The notes under the pieces are model-generated. The model saw nothing but the letters and a program-made list of their open reading frames with translations. It had not been told where the DNA came from and made no database searches. From assembly GCA_026129255.1 (NCBI GenBank), contig JAHCIJ010000001.1:124001-188000 (forward strand): a stretch of 64,000 nt of DNA. The letters run 5' to 3'. Position 1 is the first letter of the stretch, and each line of letters starts with the position of its first letter. This document shows, one piece after another, positions 2,096 through 24,528 of this stretch. The stretch is from Anaerolineales bacterium (GTDB lineage Bacteria; Chloroflexota; Anaerolineae; Anaerolineales; UBA11579). A program made the position numbers and the translations under genes.

Positions 2096-3031
2096 ATGGC
2101 AGATATAAAGATTCGAAAGGGCATGCGTATAGGGCCACTGGTTGTTAGGCAGCTTATCCCCTCGTGGGAGAAGGGCGGCATGGCCTATGTTGTTTTGGTG
2201 TCTGCCGCGGATGATGAAAAGCTATACGCGCTCAAACTGGCAAAGCGGGACAAGGATGGGTTTAAACAGAACTTCAATGCCCTTCTACTTGAAGCCAATT
2301 TGCTGAAGAAGCTGGATCACCCTGGCATTGTTAAGCTGGCGCCCTTGCCACAGTCAGAAGCTGAGCGGGAAAGAAAAAAACCACGCAGGTTCACCGCGTA
2401 TGCTTCTGAGTTTCCTGATCAACCTCCCTACTTTTTGATGGATTTCCTGGCAGGGGGAACGCTAACCGACGTGCTTAATCAGACGTCAAATGAAGATATC
2501 AGTTTGCCGCAGGCGCTTCAGTTCGCGCACAAACTGGCTGAGACACTTGCCTATCTTCATGATCAAGGGTTCTTGCATAACGACCTCAAGCCCAATAACA
2601 TTATGTTCACCAGCGCGGCCAAAGCGCGTGCCTTGGACGAGCCTATCCTGATTGATTTTGGCATCTCGACAACAAAGGGAGCCCCTTACCTTGACGGGCT
2701 TACCGTACACTATGCTGCGCCTGAGAAATTGCTGCATGCCATTGATAGTTCTTACAAACCGCCCGCAAGCTCGGGCTGGGTTAAGGTGGATGTGTGGGGC
2801 TTAGGCGTGATCTTGTACCAGATGCTGACTAGAAAGTACCCGTACCACGGGGATGACCCTGATTCTTTGATTACTACGATACGTACGCGCCGGCCAGAAA
2901 GAATCTCAGAATTCCGAGGCAAGGTATCCAAGAAGGTGGAAGAGCTGATATTGGAAGGCTGCCTTAGCTCTGATGCCAAGAACAGACTTACATCATTGGA
3001 GTTGCGGAAGCAACTTGAGGGGATGTTGTAA
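2096..3031 (+). CDS. Ser/Thr protein kinase, soluble, non-RD type
   Basis: A 311-residue kinase domain with no membrane segment. Visible motifs are the VAIK-like lysine in YALKLAK, HNDLKPNNIM in the catalytic loop, IDFGIS (DFG) and YAAPEK (APE). The usual glycine-rich loop is poorly kept (SWEKGGMAYVV) and the HRD arginine is Asn, so it is a non-RD kinase that may not need activation-loop phosphorylation. It lies 21 nt after the VWA-FHA gene and its TAA overlaps the next ATG by one base (TAATG), which indicates an operon. Its substrates may be the neighbouring FHA proteins (inference). Confidence 0.88.
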   Translation: MADIKIRKGMRIGPLVVRQLIPSWEKGGMAYVVLVSAADDEKLYALKLAKRDKDGFKQNFNALLLEANLLKKLDHPGIVKLAPLPQSEAERERKKPRRFTAYASEFPDQPPYFLMDFLAGGTLTDVLNQTSNEDISLPQALQFAHKLAETLAYLHDQGFLHNDLKPNNIMFTSAAKARALDEPILIDFGISTTKGAPYLDGLTVHYAAPEKLLHAIDSSYKPPASSGWVKVDVWGLGVILYQMLTRKYPYHGDDPDSLITTIRTRRPERISEFRGKVSKKVEELILEGCLSSDAKNRLTSLELRKQLEGML

Positions 3032-5085
3032 TGACCATGCAGCTGCAGAGTGACGCTCAAGCTTTTATGGGCAAGCGCGATCTTCTTGAAGACCGCGCAA
3101 GCAGCCCCGTGATCAGTACCGCTTCTGGCCTTGAATTGACGCTGGCGATTGTGGCGGATGGCATGGGGGGCGAGGGCAAAGGCGAACGAGCTTCCACTTT
3201 AGCGATTGACGAATTTACAAAGTCACTGAAGCGGGCTACCCATACGCACGTACCCACGGTGTTGCAAGATGCCTTGCTTGCCGCAAATACGGCTGTGCTG
3301 CGGGAAGTGGATGCCACGCCAGGGCTAAATGGCATGGGCACTACCTTTGCGGTTGCTGCAGTGCATGACGGAAAGCTCTATATTGCCAATGCAGGCGACA
3401 GCAGGATCTATCTGGTGCGAAATGGCGAGCTCACTCAAATTTCTCGCGACCATACGCTTGAAACAAAAATGAGGCTCAAGGGCCGCGACGAGAGTTACAT
3501 TAGCGCCAATCGCAACCGCGCCAAGCTGACAAACCACATCGGTACGCCAGATAAATTTTACGTTGACCTTGGCTTGTATCTGGATCAAAACGCGGCGACT
3601 GAAAAAGCAGAACAGAATCAAGGGCTCGAGCTGAATGCTGGAGACAGCATTCTAGTATGCTCCGACGGTTTGCTCAAAGCCACGCGTGAACGAGAGCAGG
3701 CTGTTGCCAGCAAAGAGATTGTTGACTATATTCGGGCCTTCGCGCCGGCACAGGTCACTCAGAAACTTGGTGAATTGGCCGTTACCCGTGGGGCAAGTGA
3801 CAATGTGTCTCTTGCCGTCATTGACACCGGCGGCAAGAAAAAGCGTCTGCCGGTTGGTAAACCTAAACTTGGGAGCCTGGCGGCGGTGGGGGGCCTGGCC
3901 GCCCTGGTGTTGGCGGCTTTCTTCCTGTTTGGAGATAGGCAGCCTGCTGAAATTCCCCAGCTAGAAGATAATTTTGCTTTTGTTTCAGACTTGAGCGGGA
4001 ACGTTGAACTTGTTCCGACTGGGACGATCAATTCTCAACCCCTGCGTAGAAGCGACATCTTTCAAGCAGGTGAGGGCGCTACGGTCGAAGTTGTAGGTTC
4101 AGGCTATCTGCGCCTGGGTTTGGCGGATAACTCGATTATCTCGCTTGGCGATGACACCAAGATTGAATTGCGTCAGATTAGTTCTGGCACACAGGTGGAA
4201 ACGATCATTGTCCTGATCCGCGGTAAGTTGTTGGTGAATGCAAATATTCCCGATGACCGTGAATTTTGGGTGCGCTCTGCGAACGGTGCAGAAGCCAGAG
4301 TAGAGGGCACGATTATGGGTGTCTTTTACGACTTTGGCGGGCAGCACTTCCAGGTGGACTGTTTGGAAGGGCACTGTGTGGTTCAGGATGCTAACGGCAA
4401 TAGTGTGGATCTCTCCGTGGGCGAATATGCCGAGATTTTCGGCCTTGGGGATGTAAGCCAGATCCAGCCAGCACGGTACGAATTTTGGCAGGATATTGCA
4501 GACAGGGGGCTGGTGTACACGCCGACGCCCACGCCACGCGGGGCGCCTACGGCTACTCCGCAGCCCACGGCCACCACGCGCTCGAGCAATGCGACGGCCA
4601 CACCGATCCTGCTTGGCTGTACGGACCAAAAGGCGCAGAATTACAACGCTAATGCCAATACGGATGACGGCAGTTGCCGGGACCATGTGAACGGCTGTAT
4701 GGACCCGAATGCACAGAACTACAATCCCAACGCCACGCGCGGTACTAGCAGCGACTGCATACCGCACGTACTCGGCTGCACGGATGCGTCTGGGGCGCAG
4801 AACTACAACCCCAGTGCCACAAAAAATGACGGCAGCTGTATTGCCCACATACTGGGTTGTATGGACGCAAACGCGCAGAACTACAACCCGAGCGCGACGA
4901 AGGACAATGGCAGCTGTGTGCCACATGTGATGGGCTGCATGGACCCGAACGCGCAAAACTACGACCCGAGCGCCACGAAGGACAATGGCAGTTGTGTGCC
5001 GCATATTCTGGGCTGCATGAACCCGAGCGCAAATAATTTCAACCTGAGCGCCACGAAGGACGATGGCAGTTGCACCTTCGATTGA
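3031..5085 (+). CDS. PP2C-type Ser/Thr phosphatase with FecR-like and Cys-repeat outer domains
   Basis: The N-terminal PP2C domain (about 1-265) has the metal-binding motifs ADGMGG, NAGDSR, CSDGL and SDNVS, so it should be an active Mn/Mg-dependent phosphatase. A membrane helix follows near 280-300. Outside come a FecR-like beta domain (about 310-485), a Pro/Thr linker, and six repeats of about 26 residues of the form GCMDPNAQNYNPSATKDDGSC-like, each with two cysteines (see the repeat entry). The stop TGA overlaps the TTG start of the next kinase. That kinase has the same membrane-FecR-repeat arrangement, so the two enzymes probably sense the same cue and act in opposition (inference). Confidence 0.9.
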   Translation: MTMQLQSDAQAFMGKRDLLEDRASSPVISTASGLELTLAIVADGMGGEGKGERASTLAIDEFTKSLKRATHTHVPTVLQDALLAANTAVLREVDATPGLNGMGTTFAVAAVHDGKLYIANAGDSRIYLVRNGELTQISRDHTLETKMRLKGRDESYISANRNRAKLTNHIGTPDKFYVDLGLYLDQNAATEKAEQNQGLELNAGDSILVCSDGLLKATREREQAVASKEIVDYIRAFAPAQVTQKLGELAVTRGASDNVSLAVIDTGGKKKRLPVGKPKLGSLAAVGGLAALVLAAFFLFGDRQPAEIPQLEDNFAFVSDLSGNVELVPTGTINSQPLRRSDIFQAGEGATVEVVGSGYLRLGLADNSIISLGDDTKIELRQISSGTQVETIIVLIRGKLLVNANIPDDREFWVRSANGAEARVEGTIMGVFYDFGGQHFQVDCLEGHCVVQDANGNSVDLSVGEYAEIFGLGDVSQIQPARYEFWQDIADRGLVYTPTPTPRGAPTATPQPTATTRSSNATATPILLGCTDQKAQNYNANANTDDGSCRDHVNGCMDPNAQNYNPNATRGTSSDCIPHVLGCTDASGAQNYNPSATKNDGSCIAHILGCMDANAQNYNPSATKDNGSCVPHVMGCMDPNAQNYDPSATKDNGSCVPHILGCMNPSANNFNLSATKDDGSCTFD
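4612..5082 (+). repeat. Six coding Cys-bracketed repeats of about 78 bp (PP2C gene)
   Basis: In-frame tandem repeats encoding GCxDxxAQNYNPxAT, then DDGSC or DNGSC, spaced by a short hydrophobic link (xPHIL). Two cysteines per unit suggest disulfides and the Asp/Asn-rich loops suggest calcium binding; both are inference. The later units are nearly identical in DNA to those at 6741-7046, which points to recent tandem duplication or gene conversion between the two genes. Confidence 0.9.
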
Positions 5086-7049
5086 TCCAAAGGGAGATTG
5101 ACGGCTTCCGCATCGTCCAGAAGCTTGGTGAAGGGGGAATGGCTGAGGTCTACAAGGCCATTGATGTAAGGTTGGGGCGTGAAGTCGCCATCAAGTTTCT
5201 AAGTCCTACAGCAGAAGACGGTGACGTTAGCCGGCAGCGTTTCAAGCTGGAAGTAAGGTCTCTGGCTCGCTTGAGCCATCCTAATATCGTCTCAGTGCTG
5301 GGGTATGGCGAGTACGAAGGACGCCCTTACCTGGTCATGGAATATGTGCCTGGCGGCACGCTTAAGGATAAGCTGGGCAAGCCAATGCGCTGGGAGACGG
5401 CGCTGGCCTTATTGGCGCCTATCGCCCGTGCGCTGCATTATGCACACGGCAAGAAGATCGTCCACCGCGATGTAAAACCCTCCAACATCTTGATCACTGA
5501 AGATGGCCGCCCCATGCTTTCTGATTTTGGGGTGGCCAAATTGATCGGCTCGGAGAAAACCACTGCGCTCACGGCGACGGACATGGGCATCGGCACTCCG
5601 CATTACATGTCCCCGGAGCAGGGGCGCAATCAGGAGATTGGCCCCAAGAGCGATGTGTATTCGTTGGGGGTTGTGTTGTACGAAATGGTCACTGGCAAGA
5701 AGCCGTTTCAGGCAGATACCCCGATTGCCATCTTACTCAAGCATATTGAAGACCCCATTCCTAACCCGCGTCAAGTTGTAAAGGACCTGCCTGAGAAAAT
5801 TCGGCGGATCATATTGCGAGCGTTAGCAAAAGATCCCCGTGGCCGCTTTAGGGACATGGCGGAAATGGCTTCGGCGTTAGAGGGCAAGAGTTCGAAGCCT
5901 AGCGAGGCGAAACGCAATACGTCTTTGCTTTATGGGTTGCCCGCGTTAGGGGTAGGGCTGGTTTTGCTTTTCTATCTTGTGCCCCTAGTCCGCGGCGCTT
6001 TTGTTGCCACGCCAACCGAGACTACATTGCCGGACGGTTTTGCCCTTGTGACTGAGTTGCGCGGCGAGGTCGTGTATACACCGGCCGGCACAATCAACTG
6101 GCAGCCACTGAGCCCTGGTGACCATTTTGAAGCCGGGCAGGGGGCCACCGTCGAAGTTGTAGGCGAGGGGTATGTAGAGCTGAGCCTGACTGACGGCTCT
6201 GCACTAACACTGGGGGATGAGACTAAGATCGAACTGGCCCAAATAAGCTCTGATACTGATGCCGAGACCATTGTTACTTTGATTCGCGGGCAGTTGCTGG
6301 TTAATGCCAGTATCCCTGAGGACCGCGATCTATTGGTGCAGGCTACCAATGGTGCCATCGCCAGGGTTGAGGGTACGATTATGGGCGTCTTTTTTGGGGC
6401 GGGCGGCCAGCACTTTCAGGTGGATTGCCTGGAGGGCCACTGTGTAGTGCTGGACACAAATGGCAATGCCGTGAATTTAAGCGCCGGCCAGTATGCTGAG
6501 ATATTTGGTCTGGAAGATGTGAGCGACATCCAAACTGCGCGCTATGAATTTTGGCATGGGCTTGCCGATTTGGACCTGCTCTTTACGCCTACGGCTGTGC
6601 TGGCAGGCGTCAGCACAGAGACACCCGTATCCACGCCGACCTCGCGACCGGCGCAAGTGGCGCCGGCTTCCACCTTGCAGTCTGCTGGCGACCAGGGTCC
6701 GCCGGATTCGCCCACCAGCGTGCCCGTGTCTGCGATCTATGGTTGTACGGACGCGTCCGGAGCCCAGAACTACAATCCCAACGCTACCCACGACGATGGT
6801 AGCTGTGTGGCCCACATCCTGGGGTGCAGGGATGCGAATGCGCAGAACTACAACCCGAGCGCTACGAAGGACAATGGCAGCTGTGCGCCGCATATTCTGG
6901 GCTGCATGGACCCGAACGCGCAGAACTACAACCCGAGCGCTACGAAGGACAATGGCAGCTGTGTGCCGCATATTCTGGGCTGCATGGACCCGAACGCACA
7001 GAACTACAACCCGAGCGCCACGAAGGACGATGGCAGTTGCACCTACTAA
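5082..7049 (+). CDS. Transmembrane Ser/Thr kinase with FecR-like and Cys-repeat outer domains
   Basis: The start is taken as TTG at 5082. It lines up with the initiator Met of three paralogous kinases (MIxxEIxGF) and forms a TTGA overlap with the preceding phosphatase stop. No better ATG exists. The kinase domain (about 1-270) has GEGGMAEVYKA, VAIKFL, HRDVKPSNIL, SDFGVAKL and GTPHYMSPEQ, all intact. A membrane helix lies near 285-305. The outer part repeats the phosphatase layout: FecR-like domain (about 315-490), linker, and four Cys-bracketed repeats. The tight coupling suggests a matched kinase-phosphatase sensor pair. Confidence 0.9.
   Translation: MIQREIDGFRIVQKLGEGGMAEVYKAIDVRLGREVAIKFLSPTAEDGDVSRQRFKLEVRSLARLSHPNIVSVLGYGEYEGRPYLVMEYVPGGTLKDKLGKPMRWETALALLAPIARALHYAHGKKIVHRDVKPSNILITEDGRPMLSDFGVAKLIGSEKTTALTATDMGIGTPHYMSPEQGRNQEIGPKSDVYSLGVVLYEMVTGKKPFQADTPIAILLKHIEDPIPNPRQVVKDLPEKIRRIILRALAKDPRGRFRDMAEMASALEGKSSKPSEAKRNTSLLYGLPALGVGLVLLFYLVPLVRGAFVATPTETTLPDGFALVTELRGEVVYTPAGTINWQPLSPGDHFEAGQGATVEVVGEGYVELSLTDGSALTLGDETKIELAQISSDTDAETIVTLIRGQLLVNASIPEDRDLLVQATNGAIARVEGTIMGVFFGAGGQHFQVDCLEGHCVVLDTNGNAVNLSAGQYAEIFGLEDVSDIQTARYEFWHGLADLDLLFTPTAVLAGVSTETPVSTPTSRPAQVAPASTLQSAGDQGPPDSPTSVPVSAIYGCTDASGAQNYNPNATHDDGSCVAHILGCRDANAQNYNPSATKDNGSCAPHILGCMDPNAQNYNPSATKDNGSCVPHILGCMDPNAQNYNPSATKDDGSCTY
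6741..7046 (+). repeat. Four coding Cys-bracketed repeats of about 78 bp (kinase gene)
   Basis: Same unit as in the preceding phosphatase gene. Units 2-4 are almost identical to each other in DNA, including synonymous positions. Such identity suggests that copy number can change by recombination. Confidence 0.9.
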
Positions 7050-7085: not shown

Positions 7086-8438
7086 ATGATCAGCAAAAAT
7101 TTCCACATTCAGCGCGGCGATGATATCGAAACGCTGCCCAAGAATGATGCATTCCAATCCTTTAACTTGCAGAGCAAATGGGGCGCGCTGGAAGCGCTGG
7201 TTTTGGTGGATGGAGAGAGCAGTGGCACGGCTAAAAACAAATTTACCGCAGTGGTGATACAGCAGTGCCTGACGGAGCTTCGCTCCCTGGCAAAAACTTC
7301 GGCAAAAGTTGAAACTGCGCTTGAAGACACGCTGCGTAACGTGCATGCACACCTGCGCAATATGCGGGCATTGGACTCCAGTTTGGATGCGCAGGATGTG
7401 GATGTTGCCATTGTCGCCATACTTAAGGATAAGGTGGCTGTTGCGCTCAGCGGCCGCCTGGCTGCCTTGCGTGTAAAGGCTGGCCAGGTCGACGTGCTGG
7501 CTGGCGGCCGGGGCGCGGCGGGCGTCTTTTCGCGTGCGGCAAGCTTTCAGCCCGAAGTGGCTGGCTCGGTAAGCTTGGGCAAGGGGGAGGATATTGTCAT
7601 TGCCAGCGATGGCATTCATGGCGGCGCTCCCTCCGCCTGGCGCACAATCCGCAAAGAAGAGCTAGTAGAGACCCTTAAGAATGAGCGTGATTTAAAGCGC
7701 GCGGCAAAACGCCTGGTGTCGTACCCGCTTGGCCGCAACGTGGCCGAAGATATTTCAGTGGTCATTTTGCGCCAGGCGCAGGCCGATAAGAAGAAGCCGG
7801 TTTGGCTTTTGCCCGCAGCCATTGGCTTAGCTATAGTGGCCTTTTTTGCCTATCGCTCACTCTCTCCCCAAGCTGCGCCAGACAACGGACGCGTCACTGT
7901 GTCTGAGGTGACCGGGCTCGTGTTCAAAGTTGACCCGGCCCAATCGTCCCACGAGAATATCTCTGGTTTTGATCAGATATCTGCGCTGTACACGGTTTCT
8001 ACAGGTTCTGCTTCCTCTGCTACTATGCTTGTTCGTTCGGCAGACCTCATGCTTGGGCCGGATAGCAAAGTTTATTTTGCACAAATAGAATCTGAGGCAC
8101 CTGAACGTGCTAACCAAGTAATCTTGGACGTGGAAACACAAAGCTGGTTGCTGCTGAAGGATGGTGATGGTGCTCTTACTGAGGGCTTTGTAATGCGCAA
8201 TGGCTCGAATTCTTTTGAGCTAGTAGGAGCGAGCATGCCTGGCCAGGTAGTACTTGTTTCCCGACTGGGCGGATTGGAATTTTATTGTTTCCTCGGCGTT
8301 TGTTCTGTTAATGGCGAAACTCTCTCCATTGGAGACAAGGCATCTGTAGATTCAGCCACATCCAATGTAAGTACTGCTGGCATCACGGAAGCAGACAAGC
8401 TTGAACTGGAGCAGAAGTGTAACTGTAGCTTGCCTTAG
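7086..8438 (+). CDS. Degenerate PP2C-like membrane protein
   Basis: The first 235 residues follow the PP2C fold pattern. VDGESSG aligns with ADGMGG and IASDGIHGG with the SDG motif. The GDSR metal motif has become LSGRLAAL and SDN has become AEDIS, so two of the metal-binding aspartates are missing or shifted. A membrane helix (about 240-260) and a beta-rich outer domain without Cys repeats follow. AAAGG lies upstream of the ATG. It may be a pseudophosphatase that binds phosphoproteins or regulates the active PP2C (inference). A terminator follows directly. Confidence 0.72.
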   Translation: MISKNFHIQRGDDIETLPKNDAFQSFNLQSKWGALEALVLVDGESSGTAKNKFTAVVIQQCLTELRSLAKTSAKVETALEDTLRNVHAHLRNMRALDSSLDAQDVDVAIVAILKDKVAVALSGRLAALRVKAGQVDVLAGGRGAAGVFSRAASFQPEVAGSVSLGKGEDIVIASDGIHGGAPSAWRTIRKEELVETLKNERDLKRAAKRLVSYPLGRNVAEDISVVILRQAQADKKKPVWLLPAAIGLAIVAFFAYRSLSPQAAPDNGRVTVSEVTGLVFKVDPAQSSHENISGFDQISALYTVSTGSASSATMLVRSADLMLGPDSKVYFAQIESEAPERANQVILDVETQSWLLLKDGDGALTEGFVMRNGSNSFELVGASMPGQVVLVSRLGGLEFYCFLGVCSVNGETLSIGDKASVDSATSNVSTAGITEADKLELEQKCNCSLP

Positions 8439-8453
8439 CTGACGACATAACAT

Positions 8454-8493
8454 TAGCCTCCAGCCTAATACTTTGGGCTGGAGGCTATTTTTT
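8454..8493 (+). terminator. Rho-independent terminator after the degenerate PP2C gene
   Basis: A perfect 12-bp stem (8454-8465 with 8476-8487) and 10-nt loop are followed by six T. The stop codon of the convergent EssC gene lies inside the right arm (8485-8487). Confidence 0.92.
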
Positions 8494-11400
8494 ATTAATC
8501 TGCTTCACCCAGGCTGCTTCTGCGGCCGCAATACTTTCGCCCTCATTCCAATAGGCAAAGGCATGCATGAGTTGTGCTTGATTGCGGTTCACGAGGAAGC
8601 CGCGCCCTGGCGGCAGGCCACTAACGTTGGGCTGCCCCTTGGGTTTCAAAGTCTGGTTGAACTCATCCAGGCCTTCCGTGCCGCCCAGTAGCACTCCCGT
8701 GCCGTGAGCGCGCACTGGTGCGCCAAAGGGATTGGCTTTTTCAGCCTCGTATCTTGGGAAGTCGTTGGTTCTTGCGCCAATCAAGAAGGATATACCCAGC
8801 TCCCTGGCGTTTTGGGAAAGCGCACCCAGGGTGGCTAGTTCGCCTGCATCAGCCGCTTTCATTAGCTTGCCAAAATCGTCAAGCACCACAAGGATGTGTG
8901 GCCATGATTGGGCAAGCTTGGCGCCGTCTGCTTTTGGATCCTTCTCGTACAGAGCATCCAGCTCCATCTGGCGTTCCTGGCGCACAGTTGTCAGGTTGGT
9001 CAGCACATCGGCAAATTGTTTGCCTACGGCCACATACGCGTCCGTGTGGGGAATCTCTGCCAGATTGGCGTATTCTCTTCTCCCGTGGAAGTCAATAAAA
9101 TTGATCCTAAGCTTTGCGGAAGAATAGAGCTTAGCCAGACTTAGCACCCAGCCTTTAATCAGCGATGTTTTACCTTGGGCATTGCTTTGGCTGGCTATCC
9201 AGAAGAACGGGCCATCTTCAGCCAGGGAGAAGCCTAGTTCTTTGAATGTGGAATATTCCCTGCCTAAAGGCGTGGATAGGTTTCCGAGCTCGGCTGATTT
9301 TTCAGACAGAGTATACGGAATCAACAAGGGCAGCTTGTCAATTTTTTGTGGCCGGTGGCCCTTCCAGGTTGCCATATTGCGCACAATGTCAGCGAACCTC
9401 TCCCCGCGCAATGTTTCGCCCTCATATAAGGGATGGGCTGCTTGAAATTCCAGAGGAGGCGTGGCTCTCAGGTATCCCCTTCCGGGTACTGGACCAAGGT
9501 TGATCTCTTCTTCCAGCTTGGATTTGGACGGGCGACCAATGATGTTGCTGTATTCGGCCTCGTCTACTTGATAGAGGGAAATCCGTTGGCTTATGTTGTC
9601 TGCAAACTTGGTGGGGCTTAAATCTGCCAACGTATTTGAAGAGGCGACCAAAAATATACCGATGGCCGTACTGCCGCTGAGGAGTGCATCCAGGCTGGAG
9701 ACAAGGTCGTCAGAATAGTTTTGTTCAAAAGCGGTTTTAAACTCTCTGAAATTATCTATAACAAGATAGATGACAGGCAGCTTGTCCTCTTCTGCTACTG
9801 CGCGATTGTACTCTCGCCAGTTGGCCTTCCTTTTTTCTGAGAGCAACTCGTTGCGCCTGTTTGTCTCTGCGTGTAGATACTGGATAATGCGTTCAGTCTT
9901 CTCACGTTCGTTTCGGGTGGCTACGGCGCCTACATGGGGCAGCTCTTGTAGATTGTTAAGGGAGGACTGGCCTCCGTAATCAATGATGTAAAAAGAAACC
10001 GCACTTGGCGCATTCAACAGGGCGCCTGAGATTACCAGTGTGCGCAACAGTGTGCTGCGACCAGTCCCCGCCGAGCCAAACACCAGGAGATGGTCGCCGC
10101 CCATCCCTTGATTTAGCTGATAGATGTACTGTTTTTGCTTCGCGGGTACATCGTACATGCCCAGAATAGGGGAAACAGGTACTTCGTGCTCTGCTTTTTT
10201 CTGTTCGAGGCGTACAGGCTGCCAGGTAGTGCCATCCCACCCGCCGACTAATGTCTTCTCTAAGATCTCGTCTAGCGAAATTTGATCATCCAGTGGTTCA
10301 GGCCACACTTTTGGCGGCGGTGCCAGATTCATCTCTATGGCCGTCTGAATGATCTTGTCTACAATGACTGTAGTCTGGGTTTGTCGAGTGGAGCGGTCTT
10401 CCTGAGGATTGACTTCAATCTGCACGACATCTTTGCGTCCATCGGGCCAAACGCGCACATATTCTTTGCCAGCTTGATTGTGGTTGGCTCCGTATTCAGC
10501 CCCCGCATAGGCAACCTGGAACTGCGTCCGGGTCTTGCCGAGGATGATTGCGCGGCCACGCGGCAAATTGACCGCATCGGGGACACCTACTAGCTGCATA
10601 CTATCCTGGGCTTCGCTGACGCGTAAACAAATCCTGAACGAGGAGTTTTGCAAAACCTCTGGGTCTACGGCGCTGGGGATGTTTTGTGTTGCCAGGATCA
10701 GGTGAATGCCAAGCGAGCGTCCTTTGCGGGCAATACTGATCAGGCGTTTGCTTTCGTCTGGATGCTTCTGCTTGAATTCGGCAAATTCGTCAAAGACAAT
10801 AATGAGCCGCGGCAAAGGCTTCTTGACACGCAGCAGACGGTAATCATCGATGTGGGCTCTGCGCAGCCCAAAAAGCTGCATTGCCTGGCCCAGAATTTTT
10901 TCACGGGTTTCAATCTCGCCGCTCAAAGCCAAGATGATGCGTTCTGCATAGCTGCTGTGGCTTTCAATATTTGTGATCACGCCCACAGTGTGCGGAAGCT
11001 TTTCGAGCTCGCTAAACGCAGACCCGCCTTTGAAGTCGATAAGAGCGAAATTCATGTCGTACGGATGATGCTTCACAGCCAGGGCCAGCAGGATAGTCTT
11101 CAGCACTTCACTTTTGCCGGAGCCGGTCATCCCGCCCAGTACGCCGTGGGGGCCGTAGGCTGAGTCCGAGTCATTGATATCGAAGACGAACGGAGACGTG
11201 GGAGACACTAACCCGATAGGTGTGCTGAGGTAGTCCTTCTTGGGGTTTTCCTCCCACCATTTCCTGACTGGCAGGTCTTCAATCTCTGGGGAGCCCAATA
11301 AATCCAGCAAGGTTATTAGCTCTGGCGGACTGGTGGAAAGATCATCCGGCCAGTTAATACGCTCTAAATAGGCAGATAGCCTTTGGGCATCCTCAAGCGC

Positions 11401-12552
11401 CATCTTCTCGACGACGCCCTTTTTTACAACGCCGCCGTGTCCGGTTAGCTTGAGCGTCAGATTGCTGCTCACTATTTCAACAACCGCGCCACACTTGCTA
11501 GGCACCTGCTTTGATGTTTCTGTAACAAAAAGGCCAATCACGCCAAGTTTCTTGCCTTTGTCTAGCAAGACACTAATCGCTGGGTGTTGTAGTTTGCCGT
11601 CGTATGCGTCCAACAAGACAATGACAATGGGGAGCGGCATGCTATTCTCTTCCCCATCCTTTTGCACGGCCCGGCGTGACTCCACTAAGTGATCACGGCT
11701 GTGCAGCAGGCTCTCCAGATTGTTCAAGTACTCGTTGACTGAACCGCCGCTAATCAGGTTGACGGCAGAATGCGGCGTATTGTCTACCCAGGCCCATTTG
11801 CTTGAGTTGCCCGCAATAGAAATCTGTACTTCTGTGGGCCAGTTGTGCACAAGCAAATTTGAAAGAAATGAACGCACAACAGGAGTTACATCCTGTGATC
11901 TGCCAGAAAAGCCTATAGAGCCTGTTTCGGCGAGGTTTACTGAAACGGCTACATTCTGCAGGGTTTGGTATGCAGCTGGCAGCCCTTTGGCGTGGCGTAT
12001 CTCTTCTGCCAGCTCTTCACTTTCCAAGTCCTCAGGTACGGGTTCGATTGTGTAGCTGGCTGCGCTGTTTCCTGCGCCCAGGCGCACACTGAGGAAATCC
12101 GCGTCATGCGGTCTGCGTTCACCCAGGCGGGTATCCTGGGTTTTGGCCCGCTCCACCAGGTGTAGGACGCTGGGGCTTTGGTCACGAAGAGTTTTTTCGT
12201 TCGCGTGTTTGAGCGTTTTTAGCTTTTCACCAACTTGCCGTAACTCGTGAGTGTAGCGTTCTTTAACTTCGGCGACCCTTTGGGTATAGGCTTTACGTTG
12301 GTTGCGTCCTGAGATGATTGTGACAGCATAGGAAGCCAGCATCAGTGGCAGGAATATCAAATAGGAGAGCGAGGCTCCTCCCCCGGATACCAGTATGATA
12401 ATCACCACGGAGATCAAGAGCATGCCGATAGGCAGCAGGGTTGTTAGCCAGCTCTGTTCCCCTGGCTTGCTGGGCATCCCGCGCGGCACCGGGATTTTCA
12501 CGGTTTCGCTGGGGAGTGCTTTTTGGATTCTAGGTGGGCGGTTGAAACTCAT
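8485..12552 (-). CDS. essC: EssC/EccC-type FtsK/SpoIIIE ATPase of a type VII-like secretion system
   Basis: This is the motor ATPase that recruits WXG100 substrates and drives export. Two membrane helices near residues 40-85 precede three FtsK-like ATPase domains. Domain 1 has an intact Walker A (GGMTGSGKSE, about 471-480) and Walker B (IIVFDEF, near 587). Domain 2 has GSAGTGRST (near 829), with Arg for the Walker A lysine, and VIDNF. Domain 3 has SNAQGKTS (near 1126) and VLDDF. Degenerate second and third domains are usual in the family. No FHA domain is seen at its N terminus, unlike Firmicute EssC. The start is set at MSFNRPP; the eleven upstream codons run into a hairpin. The three WXG100 genes lie directly upstream on the same strand. 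Confidence 0.93.
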   Translation of the reverse strand: MSFNRPPRIQKALPSETVKIPVPRGMPSKPGEQSWLTTLLPIGMLLISVVIIILVSGGGASLSYLIFLPLMLASYAVTIISGRNQRKAYTQRVAEVKERYTHELRQVGEKLKTLKHANEKTLRDQSPSVLHLVERAKTQDTRLGERRPHDADFLSVRLGAGNSAASYTIEPVPEDLESEELAEEIRHAKGLPAAYQTLQNVAVSVNLAETGSIGFSGRSQDVTPVVRSFLSNLLVHNWPTEVQISIAGNSSKWAWVDNTPHSAVNLISGGSVNEYLNNLESLLHSRDHLVESRRAVQKDGEENSMPLPIVIVLLDAYDGKLQHPAISVLLDKGKKLGVIGLFVTETSKQVPSKCGAVVEIVSSNLTLKLTGHGGVVKKGVVEKMALEDAQRLSAYLERINWPDDLSTSPPELITLLDLLGSPEIEDLPVRKWWEENPKKDYLSTPIGLVSPTSPFVFDINDSDSAYGPHGVLGGMTGSGKSEVLKTILLALAVKHHPYDMNFALIDFKGGSAFSELEKLPHTVGVITNIESHSSYAERIILALSGEIETREKILGQAMQLFGLRRAHIDDYRLLRVKKPLPRLIIVFDEFAEFKQKHPDESKRLISIARKGRSLGIHLILATQNIPSAVDPEVLQNSSFRICLRVSEAQDSMQLVGVPDAVNLPRGRAIILGKTRTQFQVAYAGAEYGANHNQAGKEYVRVWPDGRKDVVQIEVNPQEDRSTRQTQTTVIVDKIIQTAIEMNLAPPPKVWPEPLDDQISLDEILEKTLVGGWDGTTWQPVRLEQKKAEHEVPVSPILGMYDVPAKQKQYIYQLNQGMGGDHLLVFGSAGTGRSTLLRTLVISGALLNAPSAVSFYIIDYGGQSSLNNLQELPHVGAVATRNEREKTERIIQYLHAETNRRNELLSEKRKANWREYNRAVAEEDKLPVIYLVIDNFREFKTAFEQNYSDDLVSSLDALLSGSTAIGIFLVASSNTLADLSPTKFADNISQRISLYQVDEAEYSNIIGRPSKSKLEEEINLGPVPGRGYLRATPPLEFQAAHPLYEGETLRGERFADIVRNMATWKGHRPQKIDKLPLLIPYTLSEKSAELGNLSTPLGREYSTFKELGFSLAEDGPFFWIASQSNAQGKTSLIKGWVLSLAKLYSSAKLRINFIDFHGRREYANLAEIPHTDAYVAVGKQFADVLTNLTTVRQERQMELDALYEKDPKADGAKLAQSWPHILVVLDDFGKLMKAADAGELATLGALSQNARELGISFLIGARTNDFPRYEAEKANPFGAPVRAHGTGVLLGGTEGLDEFNQTLKPKGQPNVSGLPPGRGFLVNRNQAQLMHAFAYWNEGESIAAAEAAWVKQINKK

Positions 12553-12568
12553 CAGCTTTGAGTAAATG

Positions 12569-12599
12569 CAGTACCGGGCCAACATTTGGCCCGGTACTG
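12569..12599 (-). promoter_or_regulatory. Strong hairpin between the WXG100 genes and essC
   Basis: A perfect 14-bp inverted repeat (12569-12582 with 12586-12599, loop CAT) lies 21 nt after the last WXG100 stop and 16 nt before the essC start. There is no T run on the minus strand, so it does not look like a normal terminator. A 3' stabiliser or processing site giving more WXG100 than EssC is likely (inference). Confidence 0.75.
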
Positions 12600-12620
12600 T
12601 ATCCTACTGTTAGGGAGATG

Positions 12621-12896
12621 CTATCCCGCGTTATCGACACTCTCGAAGTCTGTCGCAGCGCGGTTGAGCAAGTTGCCGGCCTGTTCCAGATTTTGAATGG
12701 AGTTCCTCAGCGAGGGAACCATTCCCTGCCATTCTTGCTGAATTCTGGCGGCGCGTACACCTTTGAACTGGCTTTCCAACTGTTGCATTTGGGCAACAGC
12801 GCGGTTCACGAGCTCTTCGAGCTCCCCGCGCCTACGCAGGAATTCCGCTCCAGTAGAGCGGACTTGCTCAGTATTAACTAAAATAGTCTGTGACAT
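12621..12896 (-). CDS. WXG100 protein (WQG)
   Basis: A 91-residue helical protein with the WXG motif as EWQGM in the middle (near 55-59). Length and helix-turn-helix pattern match ESAT-6/CFP-10-like secreted proteins. It is the third gene of the minus-strand WXG100 group, 18 nt downstream of its neighbour and just before essC. It probably forms a dimer with one of the adjacent WXG100 proteins and serves as substrate or adaptor for EssC. Confidence 0.92.
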   Translation of the reverse strand: MSQTILVNTEQVRSTGAEFLRRRGELEELVNRAVAQMQQLESQFKGVRAARIQQEWQGMVPSLRNSIQNLEQAGNLLNRAATDFESVDNAG

Positions 12897-12914
12897 GTTT
12901 CCTCCAAAAGAATT

Positions 12915-13190
12915 TTAGAATTTATCTGTTTCTTCGAATCGCTCTGCGATTGACTTCATATCTTTTGCTATTTCTTCCATCAGAGCTAAAAGCCCCTGCA
13001 TATGCCCTTCAAGCAGTTTGTACGTTTGGAAGAAACCCTGTTTTTCTGCATTTGGCCAGGCAATAAGAACTTTCTTGACGGCCGCTTCCAACTCTTTGAT
13101 TTGCTTCTTATTCGCCTCCTTTGTTGCAAGAAAGACGTGTCCAGCTTCGTGTAATACTTCTGGGGAGATTTCTACGGGCTGTTCTGTCAT
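12915..13190 (-). CDS. WXG100-like protein (W-P-N variant)
   Basis: A 91-residue, highly charged helical protein in the middle of the WXG100 group. The turn reads IAWPNAEKQGF, so the Trp is kept but the Gly is Asn. Size, position and helical pattern support membership. The variant turn suggests it is the partner half of a heterodimer (inference). The start lies 6 nt after the preceding stop, implying coupling. Confidence 0.83.
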   Translation of the reverse strand: MTEQPVEISPEVLHEAGHVFLATKEANKKQIKELEAAVKKVLIAWPNAEKQGFFQTYKLLEGHMQGLLALMEEIAKDMKSIAERFEETDKF

Positions 13191-13196
13191 TATTAG

Positions 13197-13516: not shown

Positions 13517-13535
13517 TGGAATATGAGAGTTGATA

Positions 13536-13541
13536 TATAAT
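13536..13541 (+). promoter_or_regulatory. Possible -10 for the M23 effector gene
   Basis: A perfect TATAAT ends 15 nt before the ATG at 13557. No good -35 is seen (TTAATG at the right distance) and the start point would fall almost at the ribosome site, so it is tentative. It overlaps the divergent promoter, so the two units could compete. Confidence 0.4.
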
Positions 13542-13556
13542 GAGCCTAGGAGGAAA

Positions 13557-14694: not shown

Positions 14695-15765
14695 ATGACA
14701 ATATTTGTAAACCTCCCCTCCCTGCGCTCTTCTTCCAAAGATATTGAAGCCAGTGCTACTAGCCTGGATAGCTCTGGAAACAGCCTGCTAGCAGCCGCTC
14801 GTGGGGCGCCGAGCTATGATGACCAGTTTGCCCCCTGGGTCCAAGGCATTGCTGCCGAGGCCAGAGGGAAATCCAAGCTGCATGCAGCAGATGTTTCAAA
14901 TTTGGGCAAGCGTGTAGGCCGCAAAGGAGAGGAATTTGCAGCAGCAGACCAGGCAGGCTCTGCACAGATACCACAAGCAAATAGCAGTATCTTAGGGTTA
15001 TATGGCTGGAATTGGTTGCACCCCTCAGGATTTTGGGACGTATTTTTTCTTCGGTTCAAGAAGCCTTGGTTTGTAATTCCTCAGCCAAGCGCACCCCCAA
15101 ATCAGGCTGAGCCATGGCCAAGAGCAACAAAGCTTGATGATTTTGACCCTGCAGCAGTTGCGTATGACGGAAGACTAACATTGGATGAGTGGGGGCCTGC
15201 AAAAAAAACCCTCGAAAAGAACTCGGACAAGGTAGCGTTGTATCCACGAGCGGCTAATAAAGAGGGATTTAAGAGTAATTGCACTTGGTATGTTGCGGCT
15301 GCAATTTATTCGGCAAAAGGAATCGCTCTAAATAAGGGTGAATATGGCACTAACGGTGGATTTGCTGGAAGTTTAGGTGGCGGTGGAAAATGGGGACCAC
15401 GTGCGCAGACTGCAAAAGATAACCCTGAAGATCAATATCACTCGTATATAGAAAGTGTTGATAAGAAACCAATGGCCGGTTCTGCTTTTGATATTGCTTT
15501 TACTCAAGGCGGCCATGTTATGTTTGTCCAAGAAACAAGAATAGTAGAAGGTCCAGATGGGAAGAAAATGTGGGAGTTAGTTGTAAGCGAGGAAAACTAC
15601 TATCTGCTAGGTGAGGACACTTACAAAAATTCATTTGACAAAGACGCGGAGCGAGTGCTTGTTGGTGATGATACTTCAGTGGTGAGGTGGGAGCGGACAT
15701 TCAGACTGCCGATGGACGAAGACGGCGATGCGGTGACTGATGGCTCTTTTATTCATTTTAAATAG
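14695..15765 (+). CDS. Putative type VII effector: WXG-like N-terminal module plus CHAP amidase
   Basis: Residues 1-90 match the module of the preceding gene (GAPSYDDQFAPWV, then AAEARGKSKL and GKRVGRKGEEFAA). A variable middle of about 100 residues leads to a CHAP domain with SNCTWYVA (C196), GGHVMFVQE (H274) and SEENYY. CHAP enzymes are peptidoglycan amidases or endopeptidases. The ribosome site is weak and the gene follows the M23 gene by 52 nt. No signal peptide is seen. Confidence 0.82.
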   Translation: MTIFVNLPSLRSSSKDIEASATSLDSSGNSLLAAARGAPSYDDQFAPWVQGIAAEARGKSKLHAADVSNLGKRVGRKGEEFAAADQAGSAQIPQANSSILGLYGWNWLHPSGFWDVFFLRFKKPWFVIPQPSAPPNQAEPWPRATKLDDFDPAAVAYDGRLTLDEWGPAKKTLEKNSDKVALYPRAANKEGFKSNCTWYVAAAIYSAKGIALNKGEYGTNGGFAGSLGGGGKWGPRAQTAKDNPEDQYHSYIESVDKKPMAGSAFDIAFTQGGHVMFVQETRIVEGPDGKKMWELVVSEENYYLLGEDTYKNSFDKDAERVLVGDDTSVVRWERTFRLPMDEDGDAVTDGSFIHFK

Positions 15766-15871: not shown

Positions 15872-16150
15872 ATGAGCGACGACCTTGTTGGTATAAGAAA
15901 GTCTGAAGCTGAAGCAGCAGTGCGCATGATCCAGCAGCAAAGCGAAGCGGTAAACCAGGCTATTGCCAGAGTACAGAGGGCCCCGACCGAACTGCCCTCC
16001 TGGCATGGCAGGCGCAAGCGCGAGTTTGAAGAAACTGTCCAAGTGGAAATGAGGAATCTTACGGCTTCGGCTAGAGCAATTGAGGAATCCGCCAAACGGG
16101 TCCGTGATGCTTTGGTGGCTTTGTTAAATGCCGATGGCGTCAGTGTATGA
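15872..16150 (+). CDS. WXG100 protein (WHG), plus-strand copy
   Basis: A 92-residue helical protein with SWHGRRKREF at the central turn. A good ribosome site (AAAGGAG) precedes the ATG. It overlaps the next gene by ATGA, so the two are translationally coupled. It may be the secretion partner or adaptor for the hydrolases just upstream (inference). Confidence 0.9.
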   Translation: MSDDLVGIRKSEAEAAVRMIQQQSEAVNQAIARVQRAPTELPSWHGRRKREFEETVQVEMRNLTASARAIEESAKRVRDALVALLNADGVSV

Positions 16151-16956
16151 CAGTTGCTAACATGACGGTGGCTACCTCAGCTCGCTTCAACGCACACGAG
16201 TTTTACTTGCTGCTCAGTCAGTTTGCTCCCGTGGCCGCGGTAGGCTGGGAGAACCCCTACACTGGCTGGCTGGCCGAAGAGATTGAGGTTGCACAAAAAG
16301 AGGCTTACGAGTCCCTGCTTAGCCGTGACGTTATCCGCATGGTTGACGGGGATGAAATTGCTATTGAACAAAGCCTCGTGAGCCTGCTCACTGCTTGCGC
16401 CCAGCCAGAATTTTCCCTCGTGCTCACGGCTGCCCAAGCCGGCAATACGCCCTTTCAATTCCTTGTGCATGCTAAGGACGACGCGTTTGTTAAACATGCT
16501 ATTCAGGGTGAGGAGCACACGTTAGAGGCTATCGCCGAAGAACAACTGGCCGCCCAGCATCTGCTGCCCCACCTGCTTTTTGTGCCCGCTAGCGGAAAAT
16601 CTGCTGGCCCCTTCCGGCTGTCAGAGGATACCCTGCTGGCTAGCGAAGCCCTCGTGCGGGATGGCCAGCTGGACGAGGCTGAGAAAAATCTCAAGCAGGA
16701 GATCACAGGTGAGCAGCAGGGTGACATTCTTGCTGCTTTTACCAAGCCCCTCTCTCGCTCTGCCGTTATCCTGATCGCTCGCACTGCTTCCGGAGCCCCG
16801 GCGGAGGCTGGCGTTGCGGTGTACCAGGGTGAGGCGCAGACCTGGCTCATGCGCCCTTCGGAGCAGGCAGGCGCCCGCGTCATTGAATTCATTCCCGCCA
16901 CTGAGGCATCTGTAGCTGCAGAGCTTTCGAAGATGCTGATGGTTGCCAAAGCCTAA
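16147..16956 (+). CDS. Possible EspG-like type VII secretion chaperone
   Basis: A 269-residue soluble acidic protein with no signal or membrane segment. I recognise no catalytic motif. Length, the mixed alpha/beta pattern, and ATGA coupling to a WXG100 gene resemble EspG, the ESX chaperone that binds PE/PPE-type substrates near their secretion signal. The match is by context more than sequence. It may present the N-terminal module of the three hydrolases to EssC (inference). Confidence 0.5.
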   Translation: MTVANMTVATSARFNAHEFYLLLSQFAPVAAVGWENPYTGWLAEEIEVAQKEAYESLLSRDVIRMVDGDEIAIEQSLVSLLTACAQPEFSLVLTAAQAGNTPFQFLVHAKDDAFVKHAIQGEEHTLEAIAEEQLAAQHLLPHLLFVPASGKSAGPFRLSEDTLLASEALVRDGQLDEAEKNLKQEITGEQQGDILAAFTKPLSRSAVILIARTASGAPAEAGVAVYQGEAQTWLMRPSEQAGARVIEFIPATEASVAAELSKMLMVAKA

Positions 16957-16958
16957 TT

Positions 16959-17729
16959 ATGCCTACCAGAAAACTGGTCACCTTCTCGACCGTCGAAAAT
17001 AATGAATTGGTGGATATTGAGCTCCCGGGCAATGTCCCTTTAAAAGAGCTGCTTCCTGAGCTATCTACCATCCTGTTTGACAACGCGCATACTATCGCGC
17101 TGGGCGACCTTTCCTTTTTTGATGAAGAAGGTAAGCGCATAAGTTTAACTAAAAGCCTGGATGCCCAGAAGATACTGAATTCTGAGAGACTGTGGATCCA
17201 ATTTGGCAATCAGGCTCAACCGCCTGAGCAATCGCCTCGGTACCGCGTCATACAGGTTCCTGGCAGCAGCCGCCGCAAACCGGCCACGGCTCAAAAGCTC
17301 AGCGGCCTTGGTGATGCGCTAAACGAAATAGCCAAAGATAGGCGCGGCAGTATCAAGACCGGTACTCCCCCGGAACTCAAGATTGACCAACCTTGTCTGT
17401 TATATGACGAAGGCCAGAGAGGCTATATCTTCTTTTTGGGGCCATCTTTGGTGAGCATTGGGCGCCCCAAGCAGGGATACAAGCCAGATATCGACCTAAG
17501 CGAGATTGATATCGCCAAGGTCTCTTCCAGACCGCATGCGGAAATCGAAAAGAAGGGCGCCAAGTATCTCTTGCGCACCTTAAAAGCCACAAATGGAATG
17601 TTTGTTAATGATGCTGAACTAAGCCAAAATGAAACTCGAACTCTGGAAGATGGTGATGTGTTGCAATTTGGCTTCCAGGGCGCAAAGCTTTCTTTTCGGC
17701 TGCCAGAGCCTAAGAAGAAAAAATCTTAA
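16959..17729 (+). CDS. EsaB/YukD-like ubiquitin-fold protein fused to an FHA domain
   Basis: Residues 1-85 look like the small ubiquitin-like type VII component (EsaB/YukD): short beta strands with DIELPGNVPLKELLPEL and a closing LWIQFG. After a basic linker (86-145) comes an FHA domain with SIGRP (G168, R169), SSRPHAE (S190, R191, H193) and TNGMFVN, the phosphothreonine-binding residues. The protein begins 2 nt after the EspG-like gene. The fusion ties the secretion apparatus directly to the adjacent Ser/Thr kinases. Confidence 0.8.
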   Translation: MPTRKLVTFSTVENNELVDIELPGNVPLKELLPELSTILFDNAHTIALGDLSFFDEEGKRISLTKSLDAQKILNSERLWIQFGNQAQPPEQSPRYRVIQVPGSSRRKPATAQKLSGLGDALNEIAKDRRGSIKTGTPPELKIDQPCLLYDEGQRGYIFFLGPSLVSIGRPKQGYKPDIDLSEIDIAKVSSRPHAEIEKKGAKYLLRTLKATNGMFVNDAELSQNETRTLEDGDVLQFGFQGAKLSFRLPEPKKKKS

Positions 17730-22582: not shown

Positions 22583-22599
22583 TACAAGGTGTGTTTGGA

Positions 22600-24528
22600 A
22601 TGATCGGCAAAGAATTTAACGGATTTCACATTCTGGCGAAGCTCGGCGAGGGAGGCATGGCTGAGGTCTACAAAGCGCTTGACCTCAAGCTGGAGCGCGA
22701 GGTTGCCATCAAGTTCCTGCGCGCCAGCCTGGGCGAGGAGCAGGAAATTGGCCGTCAGCGGTTTGAGCTTGAAGCCAAAGCCCTCGCTAAACTGCGGCAT
22801 CCTAATATCGTGTCGGTGCTGGGCTACGGGGAGTATGAGGGGCGCCCCTACCTGGTGATGGACTATGTGCCCGGCGGTACGCTGAAGGATAAGTTGGGTA
22901 AGCCGATGCAGTGGGAAAAAGCAGCAGCCTTGCTTGCGCCTGTGGCCGAGGCTTTGCACTATGCCCACGAGAAGAAAATTGTCCATCGCGATGTGAAGCC
23001 ATCCAACATCTTGCTAAATGAGCACGGGCAGCCAATGCTCTCGGATTTTGGCGTAGCCAAAATGCTGGAGTCTGAGAAGACGATGGAGCTGACTGGGACC
23101 AATGTGGGCATCGGTACGCCGCATTACATGTCTCCAGAGCAAGGGCGCAACCAGAAGGTTGGCCCCAAGAGTGACATTTATTCGCTGGGGGTGGTGCTGT
23201 ATGAAATGGTCACAGGGCGAAAGCCATTTGAGGCCGACACCCCGTTTGCCGTATTACTGAAGCACATAGAAGATCCCATCCCGCTGCCGACTAAACGCGT
23301 GCGTACTCTGCCTGAAAATGCTGAGCGTGTAATCTTGAGAGCGTTGGCGAAGGATCCCAAGAGTCGCTATGCTGATATGACGGAGATGGTTTCTGCCTTG
23401 GGTGGCAACGAGAAGCTCCATGCCGAGAAATCTTTTACCCTGCCTAAATACCTCCTTCCGGTTGGCGCCGCTGTCGTATTGGTGTCATTGCTTGCATTTG
23501 CCTGGCCTCAGATAAGCACATGGCTGGGCCGGGGGCCGGCTGTGAAGGAGAGGGTTGGCGAGAGAATACTTGTGCGCTACAGTGAAGATGAGCCAGCCGT
23601 ACTCCAGTTTGCAGAAAATGCACCATTCCATATTGCACATGGCTGGAGCATAACTGAAGAAGACGTGTCTGAAGGGTACACCCTTAACAAGGACGAAGAA
23701 TTTGTCCGCGTGTATCTTGATGGCGAGTTGTTGGAGCCCGCATTTTTAGAAGAGGCCGAAACCAGTTTGACCTGGGTATACAACTTTCCGCGGGGGCTCA
23801 GCGGTACGCATACGTTTAGTATCGATTATTTCATTACCTGCGCCAGGTTGGAAGAAGACGCAGCCAACTGTGAGGATCCGCAGGCCTTGATCGAACCTGG
23901 CGGCTTTGAACGCACGGTTGAATTCGGGACGGCAGATTTGCAACAGCAAGCGGAAAGCTCCGCGACTCCTGCGCCCACGCCGTCGTCAATTGAAAAGAGG
24001 CAAGTCTATTTCGAGGATTTTGAGGACGACATCTTTCAATTTATTCATGTCACTGGAGACTGGGACATTGCACAAGAGGCTGATGGCAACCGGGGATACG
24101 AAATTGCTAACCAGAACGGCTCTGAGTTCCCAGCAGTAAACTTTGGCTCAACCAGTTGGACCGATTACGGCTTAGATTTTGATTTCAAAGTATTGGGAAA
24201 CACATATTGGGTGATTATTGAATTCCGCAGGAACGCCTCTGCGTCAGAAAAATATGTGGTTTCTTTTGATGATGATAATGTAAGCTTGCACTACACCACA
24301 CAGGGTTCAAATTGGCAGCATATCACGGGCCGGCAAGCTTCCTTTAGCCATAACGAATGGCACCACGCAAACATTGAAGTTCAGGGAACAACAATAAAGG
24401 TCTCAGTGGATGGGAGATTGCTTATAAGCACTAACCATTCCCGCATTTCCCGTGGGGCGGTTCTTTTTTCAGTGGGGCCGGGCAGCCATGTGATGTTTGA
24501 CAACATTGTAGTTTATGAGATCCGCTGA
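22600..24528 (+). CDS. Transmembrane Ser/Thr kinase with LamG/DUF1080-like outer domain
   Basis: The start is the ATG at 22600, by alignment with MIGKEFNGF of the neighbour; an in-frame GTG lies three codons upstream. The kinase domain is almost a copy of the preceding one, with all catalytic motifs, so the pair arose by recent duplication. A membrane helix lies near 280-300. The outer part differs: a unique region (about 310-445), then a beta-sandwich (about 465-642) like the DUF1080/LamG sugar-binding fold. This is a common input domain diversified at the ligand end. Confidence 0.88.
   Translation: MIGKEFNGFHILAKLGEGGMAEVYKALDLKLEREVAIKFLRASLGEEQEIGRQRFELEAKALAKLRHPNIVSVLGYGEYEGRPYLVMDYVPGGTLKDKLGKPMQWEKAAALLAPVAEALHYAHEKKIVHRDVKPSNILLNEHGQPMLSDFGVAKMLESEKTMELTGTNVGIGTPHYMSPEQGRNQKVGPKSDIYSLGVVLYEMVTGRKPFEADTPFAVLLKHIEDPIPLPTKRVRTLPENAERVILRALAKDPKSRYADMTEMVSALGGNEKLHAEKSFTLPKYLLPVGAAVVLVSLLAFAWPQISTWLGRGPAVKERVGERILVRYSEDEPAVLQFAENAPFHIAHGWSITEEDVSEGYTLNKDEEFVRVYLDGELLEPAFLEEAETSLTWVYNFPRGLSGTHTFSIDYFITCARLEEDAANCEDPQALIEPGGFERTVEFGTADLQQQAESSATPAPTPSSIEKRQVYFEDFEDDIFQFIHVTGDWDIAQEADGNRGYEIANQNGSEFPAVNFGSTSWTDYGLDFDFKVLGNTYWVIIEFRRNASASEKYVVSFDDDNVSLHYTTQGSNWQHITGRQASFSHNEWHHANIEVQGTTIKVSVDGRLLISTNHSRISRGAVLFSVGPGSHVMFDNIVVYEIR

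What the first reader, a model, noticed from the sequence alone, without database searches (positions are those of the whole stretch)
16959..17729. Fusion of the ubiquitin-like EsaB component to an FHA domain
EsaB/YukD is a regulatory part of type VII systems and FHA binds phosphothreonine. Joining them in one 256-residue protein gives a direct physical route from kinase signalling to the secretion motor.
Basis: partly seen in the sequence, partly recalled or inferred. Interest (0 to 1): 0.72.

Follow-up and report, generated by a model that had tools for sequence, protein, structure and literature searches.

The report
YukD-FHA fusion subunit in T7SS
In one group of Chloroflexota bacteria, a small ubiquitin-like part of a protein-export machine is joined in one protein to a domain that reads phosphate tags on threonine, and its gene sits beside the kinases and phosphatases that could write and erase such tags, so kinase control of this kind of export becomes testable.

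Summary
[quoted passage not shown] The predicted fold of 1-85 matches ubiquitin-type folds, EccD5's among them.

The fusion is not a one-off. Twenty-three proteins with the same two domains, the window's included (relatives 21-35% identical to it), turned up in 400 genomes of the order. Eighteen have a T7SS ATPase gene on the same contig stretch; contig ends limit most of the rest. The locus also has three WXG100 proteins, an EspG-fold chaperone, five kinases (four with all catalytic motifs), PP2C phosphatases and a membrane vWA-FHA protein. The ATPase has no FHA domain. The phosphothreonine-contact motifs are invariant in the family, apart from one asparagine in one member, unlike the EssC FHA domains of Bacillota.

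Most likely it is a T7SS subunit that docks at the ATPase or inner-membrane complex through the ubiquitin-like part and reads threonine phosphorylation through the FHA part. The docking site and the phospho-ligand are inferred, not shown. No held paper describes the fusion. Best filed as a new variant of a known kind, closest to T7SSc.

The parts
16959..17729 (+). YukD-FHA fusion protein, 256 aa: ubiquitin-like 1-85, linker 86-145, FHA about 148-250
16147..16956 (+). EspG-fold chaperone, 269 aa; stop codon 2 bases before the start of the fusion gene
   Evidence: AF2 model pLDDT 77; EspG3 4w4j Z 20.1 over 245 residues, next unrelated row Z 3.6; Foldseek E 2e-13
15872..16150 (+). divergent WXG100-like protein, 92 aa; overlaps the EspG-like gene by 4 bases
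   Evidence: no Pfam WXG100 match; assigned by position and by homologues at the same place in L064 and L065; it was part of the local profile's seed, so the profile match is not independent
8485..12585 (-). EssC/EccC-type FtsK ATPase, 1366 aa, no FHA domain, first TM window at residue 45
   Evidence: TIGR03928 702.6 bits, just under its cut-off of 778; Pfam FtsK_SpoIIIE, no FHA; N-terminus
12621..12896 (-). WXG100 protein, 91 aa
   Evidence: Pfam 45.9 bits, cut-off 27.3
12915..13190 (-). WXG100 protein, 91 aa
   Evidence: Pfam 34.1 bits
13197..13469 (-). WXG100 protein, 90 aa
   Evidence: Pfam 33.6 bits
17778..20282 (+). Hanks-type Ser/Thr kinase, one TM, PD40 beta-propeller repeats C-terminal; 48 bases after the fusion gene
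   Evidence: Pfam; VAIK, HRD, DFG and Thr-rich activation loop
20285..22582 (+). second TM Ser/Thr kinase
22591..24528 (+). third TM Ser/Thr kinase
80..2074 (+). vWA - TM - cytoplasmic FHA protein; vWA proteins of this kind recur beside YukD-FHA in L118, L120, L129 and L132
   Evidence: FHA 50.3 bits; vWA below cut-off; TM windows 5-9 and 447-459
2096..3031 (+). kinase without TM
   Evidence: Pfam Pkinase 126 bits; HND and DFG, no VAIK
3031..5085 (+). PP2C phosphatase with TM
5070..7049 (+). TM Ser/Thr kinase
7086..8438 (+). PP2C/SpoIIE-like phosphatase with TM, metal-binding motif looks incomplete
   Evidence: SpoIIE 27.3 bits; sequence

Best explanation
The protein is a subunit of a T7SS variant in Chloroflexota. 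Shown: a YukD/EsaB ubiquitin-like domain is joined to an FHA domain that keeps its phosphothreonine-contact motifs; the architecture is conserved across many genera of one order; it sits with the ATPase, WXG100 proteins, an EspG chaperone, kinases and phosphatases; and the ATPase itself has no FHA. Inferred: the ubiquitin-like part docks on the ATPase or inner-membrane complex, as EccD's does. The FHA part then binds a threonine phosphorylated by the neighbouring membrane kinases and cleared by PP2C. That would recruit a partner or gate assembly or activity of the secretion machine, so the FHA function that Bacillota carry on the ATPase's N-terminus is here carried by the ubiquitin-like subunit.
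For: Domains above Pfam cut-offs. Fold of 1-85 and of 148-250, EccD as best profile hit. Twenty-three proteins with this layout, 18 with a T7SS ATPase gene on the same stretch; a further one, with its ATPase, in G666. Fusion and ATPase co-occur: 18 of 23 fusion genomes against 38 of 377 others (related genomes are not independent, so the p-value is only a guide). FHA motifs: GR, SRxH, G213 and N217 in 23 of 23, N212 in 22 of 23. ATPases have only about 30-120 residues before the first TM window and no FHA match. EspG fold of the gene just upstream. Four kinases with VAIK/HRD/DFG and Thr-rich activation loops; three kinase genes follow in the same direction, 48, 2 and 8 bases apart.
Against: No binding, phosphorylation or secretion data exist for this system. 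YukD of B. subtilis did not bind the ATPase by two-hybrid (PMC9600267). FHA domains also bind without phosphate, as in EssC-EssB (PMC9600267, PMC9436818). A genus mate (G734) and other genomes in the phylum run a T7SS with a stand-alone YukD, so the FHA is not needed by all of these machines. No conserved phospho-acceptor in a partner was searched for or identified.
Confidence: 0.6

Rival explanations
1. The FHA domain is a phosphate-independent scaffold: it holds a kinase or pseudokinase domain in the complex, as the EssC FHA domains hold EssB in Bacillota, and no phosphorylation switch exists.
For: That is how FHA domains of T7SSb EssC work (PMC9436818, PMC9600267). Membrane kinases of the EssB topology lie next door. 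EssB itself is not found by Pfam in this genome, so a kinase could take its place.
Against: EssC FHA domains of T7SSb have lost the phosphate-binding residues (PMC11217815, PMC9600267), whereas here they are conserved throughout the family. Four neighbouring kinases keep all catalytic motifs and a PP2C is present.
Confidence: 0.22
2. The ubiquitin-like domain belongs to a bacterial ubiquitin-type conjugation or signalling pathway, not to the T7SS.
For: The same genome holds an apparent E1/E2/JAB operon with YukD-like domains and FHA and vWA neighbours (L067). YukD hits in the order include that operon type.
Against: That operon is on contig C2, away from this gene. In the fusion the ubiquitin-like domain is followed by a linker and an FHA rather than a free Gly-Gly end, and it lies beside the T7SS ATPase in 18 of 23 loci; no E1, E2 or JAB gene was seen in the window around it.
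Confidence: 0.04
3. The protein acts as a soluble phospho-switch like GarA/OdhI: its own linker is phosphorylated and folds back on the FHA, releasing the ubiquitin-like domain from the machine.
For: The long-linker subgroup (window, L119, L124, L126, L128) shares a K-D-R-R-G-[T/S] stretch in the linker.
Against: Most relatives have a much shorter linker without it.
Confidence: 0.1

Closest known systems
T7SSc of Bacillota (TscA-TscG; Garrett et al. 2024, PMC11217815)
   Same: WXG100, ubiquitin-like subunit, ATPase without FHA domains, TM Ser/Thr kinase, vWA protein, PPM phosphatase and EspG-like chaperone
   Different: TscB is reported as a small separate protein; here it carries an FHA. The vWA protein here is membrane-anchored with an FHA tail. 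Several kinases. A different phylum, and no shared ancestry was tested.
EsaB/YukD of T7SSb
   Same: YukD-type ubiquitin-like domain next to an FtsK ATPase and WXG100 genes
   Different: Stand-alone protein there; the FHA domains are on EssC and lack phosphothreonine-binding residues. EssB is not found here.
EccD of T7SSa (ESX)
   Same: Ubiquitin-like domain of the same kind fused to a larger protein; best solved-structure match by profile
   Different: EccD's partner domain is an 11-12 TM membrane domain; here it is a soluble FHA and there is no TM.
TsxJ (DUF6382-FHA) of T7SSe/f/j
   Same: Separate FHA-bearing component in a T7SS variant (PMC11217815)
   Different: N-terminal domain is DUF6382 in TseJ and TsfJ, and those systems keep a separate TsxB (PMC11217815).
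Fha of the type VI system (Agrobacterium)
   Same: FHA protein that activates a secretion system by binding a phosphothreonine on a membrane subunit (cited in PMC11217815 and PMC9436818)
   Different: Unrelated secretion machine; no ubiquitin-like domain known to me.

Membership tests
Type VII secretion system (general) | FtsK/SpoIIIE-type EssC/EccC ATPase | tested here: met
   TIGR03928 702.6 bits over residues 13-1294, below its curated cut-off of 778, and Pfam FtsK_SpoIIIE 199 bits
Type VII secretion system (general) | WXG100 proteins encoded beside the ATPase | tested here: met
   three above the Pfam cut-off, all at this locus and the only ones over the cut-off in the genome
Type VII secretion system (general) | secretion of WXG100 proteins shown | not testable with these tools
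   needs a culture or a surrogate host
YukD/EsaB (TsxB) family | YukD-type ubiquitin-like domain | tested here: met
YukD/EsaB (TsxB) family | no C-terminal Gly-Gly | tested here: met
   domain is followed by a linker and an FHA domain
Phosphothreonine-binding FHA | G-R, S-R-x-H and N-G motif residues | tested here: met
   present in this protein and invariant in the family except N212 in one member
Phosphothreonine-binding FHA | measured binding to a phosphothreonine peptide | not testable with these tools
   needs a binding assay
T7SSb | EssB/YukC present | tested here: not met
   no PF10140 match in the genome, while B. subtilis rings; the assembly is 92% complete
T7SSb | FHA domains at the EssC N-terminus | tested here: not met
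T7SSb | EsaA present | tested here: inconclusive
   only a 26.8-bit partial match against a cut-off of 122
T7SSa (ESX) | EccB present | tested here: inconclusive
   no match, but the search rang in no control genome
T7SSa (ESX) | ubiquitin-like domain fused to a polytopic membrane domain (EccD) | tested here: not met
   the window's protein has no TM
T7SSc | EspG-like TsxG | tested here: met
   Z 20.1 to EspG3
T7SSc | ATPase without FHA, TM kinase, PPM phosphatase, vWA protein | tested here: met
   the vWA match is below its Pfam cut-off
T7SSc | stand-alone TscB | tested here: not met
   TsxB-type domain is fused to FHA
T7SSc | ATPase clusters with TscC in a phylogeny | not tested
   no Bacillota reference ATPases were fetched; the tree holds Chloroflexota only

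The most novel reading that the evidence does not exclude
A phospho-switched T7SS class in Chloroflexota in which the phosphothreonine reader has moved from the ATPase to the ubiquitin-like subunit, so that secretion is switched on and off by membrane kinases reading the cell surface. YukD would then serve as a general adaptor that different lineages join to different modules (FHA, double FHA, ParA-like, membrane domain, and perhaps a propeller).
Probability: 0.35. Interest if true: 0.75.

Novelty: new variant of a known kind. Interest (0 to 1): 0.56.

Why it matters
EsaB is essential for T7SSb secretion, yet its precise role is unclear (PMC11217815). A natural fusion to a phosphothreonine reader suggests that this subunit sits where a phospho-signal has to be read, and gives a concrete pair of surfaces to test. 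It also extends kinase-linked T7SS variants, described so far in Bacillota and Actinomycetota, to Chloroflexota with a different wiring.

Tried and rejected
A single-sequence scan of genome contigs with the window protein found nothing; a profile was needed. An N-terminal single-sequence search of 298 class genomes found only the window, because relatives are only 14-28% identical there. Searches for the fusion in the open-licence literature gave no mention, and passages read in the closest papers gave none either; subscription papers are not held. Artefact or misjoined ORF: rejected by recurrence in diverged genomes. FHA on the ATPase: rejected. Single origin of the fusion along the ATPase tree: the label needs at least 4 changes over well supported branches, so gains and losses or swaps occurred, but the tree is unrooted and several rows are unassigned. 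Spread beyond Chloroflexota could not be sampled properly: three genomes reached through loci of other phyla gave no match that covers the YukD part, which says little.

Full report
The observation. Window 16959-17729 (+) is one uninterrupted ORF of 256 codons. Pfam places YukD at residues 13-80 and FHA at 165-238, both above the curated cut-offs. NCBIfam adds a weak match of the N-terminus to EccD. The YukD score is only one bit above its cut-off, so I looked for independent support.

Relatives. A YukD family search of 400 genomes of the phylum and an FHA-driven search pointed to the same ORFs in two genomes of the order (L005 and L015). A profile from these three found further full-length relatives among 400 genomes of the order. 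After reading the loci I hold 23 proteins with the same two-domain layout, the window's included. Pfam finds YukD in 22 and FHA in 23. The others are 21-35% identical to the window's protein, so this is an old architecture, not a misread gene. A further one was met later in G666; its YukD part is supported by the local family profile but not by Pfam. A second, more divergent set has a ubiquitin-like N-terminus followed by one or two FHA domains just after a roughly 1500-residue ATPase (L192, L195, L199), and a similar one follows a 2911-residue ATPase in L194; Pfam's YukD scores there are below cut-off or absent. A scan of named genomes places the close relatives in MAGs labelled Anaerolineae, Anaerolineales or Chloroflexi.

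Fold. A profile of the N-termini has EccD1 of Mycobacterium as its best solved match (E 2.6e-5) and aligns to stand-alone Chloroflexota YukD at 98.9% probability. The AlphaFold model shows strand-strand-helix-strands for 1-85. Structural comparison gives EccD5's ubiquitin-like domain at Z 10.4 next to SUMO, ubiquitin and ISG15 at similar Z, and FHA domains such as FhaA, EmbR and GarA for 148-250. These Z values show the fold only; the sequence profiles are what single out YukD/EccD. The linker (84-144) has very low confidence and is probably flexible.

The locus. Upstream lies a 269-residue protein without any Pfam or NCBIfam match. Its model (pLDDT 77) matches EspG chaperones of mycobacterial ESX systems at Z 16.5-20.1, and nothing unrelated exceeds Z 3.6. 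Its gene overlaps a small WXG100-like gene and ends 2 bases before the fusion gene. The T7SS ATPase (8485-12585) and three WXG100 genes lie just upstream on the other strand. Three TM kinases follow the fusion gene in the same direction, the first after 48 bases. At the start of the window are a vWA-TM-FHA protein, two further kinases and two PP2C-type proteins. The set recurs: in L118, L120, L129, L132 and L197 the ATPase lies close to genes for a vWA protein (often with FHA), a kinase and a PP2C, and the fusion gene is part of the cluster in the first four.

Link to the T7SS. In 18 of the 23 loci, the window included, the ATPase is on the same stretch. The other five (L119, L126, L128, L130, L131) lie on contigs of 5-30 kb, most of them near a contig end. 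In the same 400 genomes, 18 of 23 fusion genomes have a T7SS-type ATPase match against 38 of 377 others. Shared ancestry inflates that p-value.

Where the FHA sits. In T7SSb the ATPase carries two N-terminal FHA domains that lack phosphothreonine-binding residues and bind the EssB pseudokinase (PMC9436818, PMC9600267, PMC11217815). Here the ATPases have only about 30-120 residues before the first membrane window and no FHA match, and no EssB is found. In the fusion family the phosphate-contact motifs are invariant (GR, SRxH, G213, N217), with one exception at N212.

How it probably works. [quoted passage not shown] aureus (PMC9436818); B. subtilis YukD, however, bound YueC and not the ATPase by two-hybrid (PMC9600267). 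I therefore infer, without a test, that the ubiquitin-like part docks at the ATPase or inner-membrane complex and the FHA part reads a threonine phosphorylated by the neighbouring kinases. The ligand is unknown. A scaffold role without phosphate remains the chief rival.

Evolution. A tree of 29 ATPases puts the window's ATPase with those of L121, L124 and L197, and the genus mate G734, whose cluster has a stand-alone YukD of 146 residues, as their sister. The YukD-FHA label needs at least four changes, so the FHA was gained or lost more than once, or cassettes were exchanged. Only 2 of 11 genomes in the genus have such an ATPase, so the locus is patchy there.

Known or new. The closest described system is T7SSc (PMC11217815): same parts list, but TscB is separate there. 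No held paper that I found reports a YukD-FHA fusion. I file it as a new variant of a known kind. The search libraries do not let me exclude fusions in other phyla, or mentions in subscription papers or database architecture lists.

Noticed in passing
G000:C2:578000-597999 (locus L067), 6685-13198: A separate operon that looks like a bacterial ubiquitin-type conjugation system: E1-like protein, YukD-like domain joined to an E2-like domain, stand-alone YukD-like protein, JAB-like peptidase, TM-FHA and vWA proteins. Similar YukD pairs with FHA or vWA neighbours in L066, L068, L070 and L081.
   Followed up: partly
window 13530-14642, 14695-15765, 24568-25881: Three proteins share an N-terminal stretch (APSYDxQFxPWVxxIAAE) and end in M23 or CHAP domains; possible T7SS substrates that act on cell walls. 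L197:10026-10670 starts with a similar stretch.
   Followed up: no
L195:12076-13152, L199:12217-13287: Proteins with a ubiquitin-like N-terminus and two FHA domains directly after a roughly 1500-residue ATPase.
   Followed up: partly
L039, L046, L050, L051, L057, L059: YukD-like domain joined to a ParA/MinD-like ATPase in other Chloroflexota, judged from the sequence only.
   Followed up: no
L188:6689-7882: 397-residue protein just before a T7SS ATPase with a possibly ubiquitin-like N-terminus and what may be a beta-propeller; judged by eye.
   Followed up: no
L194:4343-13078: 2911-residue ATPase gene with several successive EssC-like matches, beside a divergent ubiquitin-like-FHA protein.
   Followed up: no
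window 3031-5085 and 5070-7049, C-terminal ends: Tandem repeats of about 20 residues (GCxDPNAQNYNPSATKDNGSC) at the likely outer ends of a phosphatase and a kinase.
   Followed up: no
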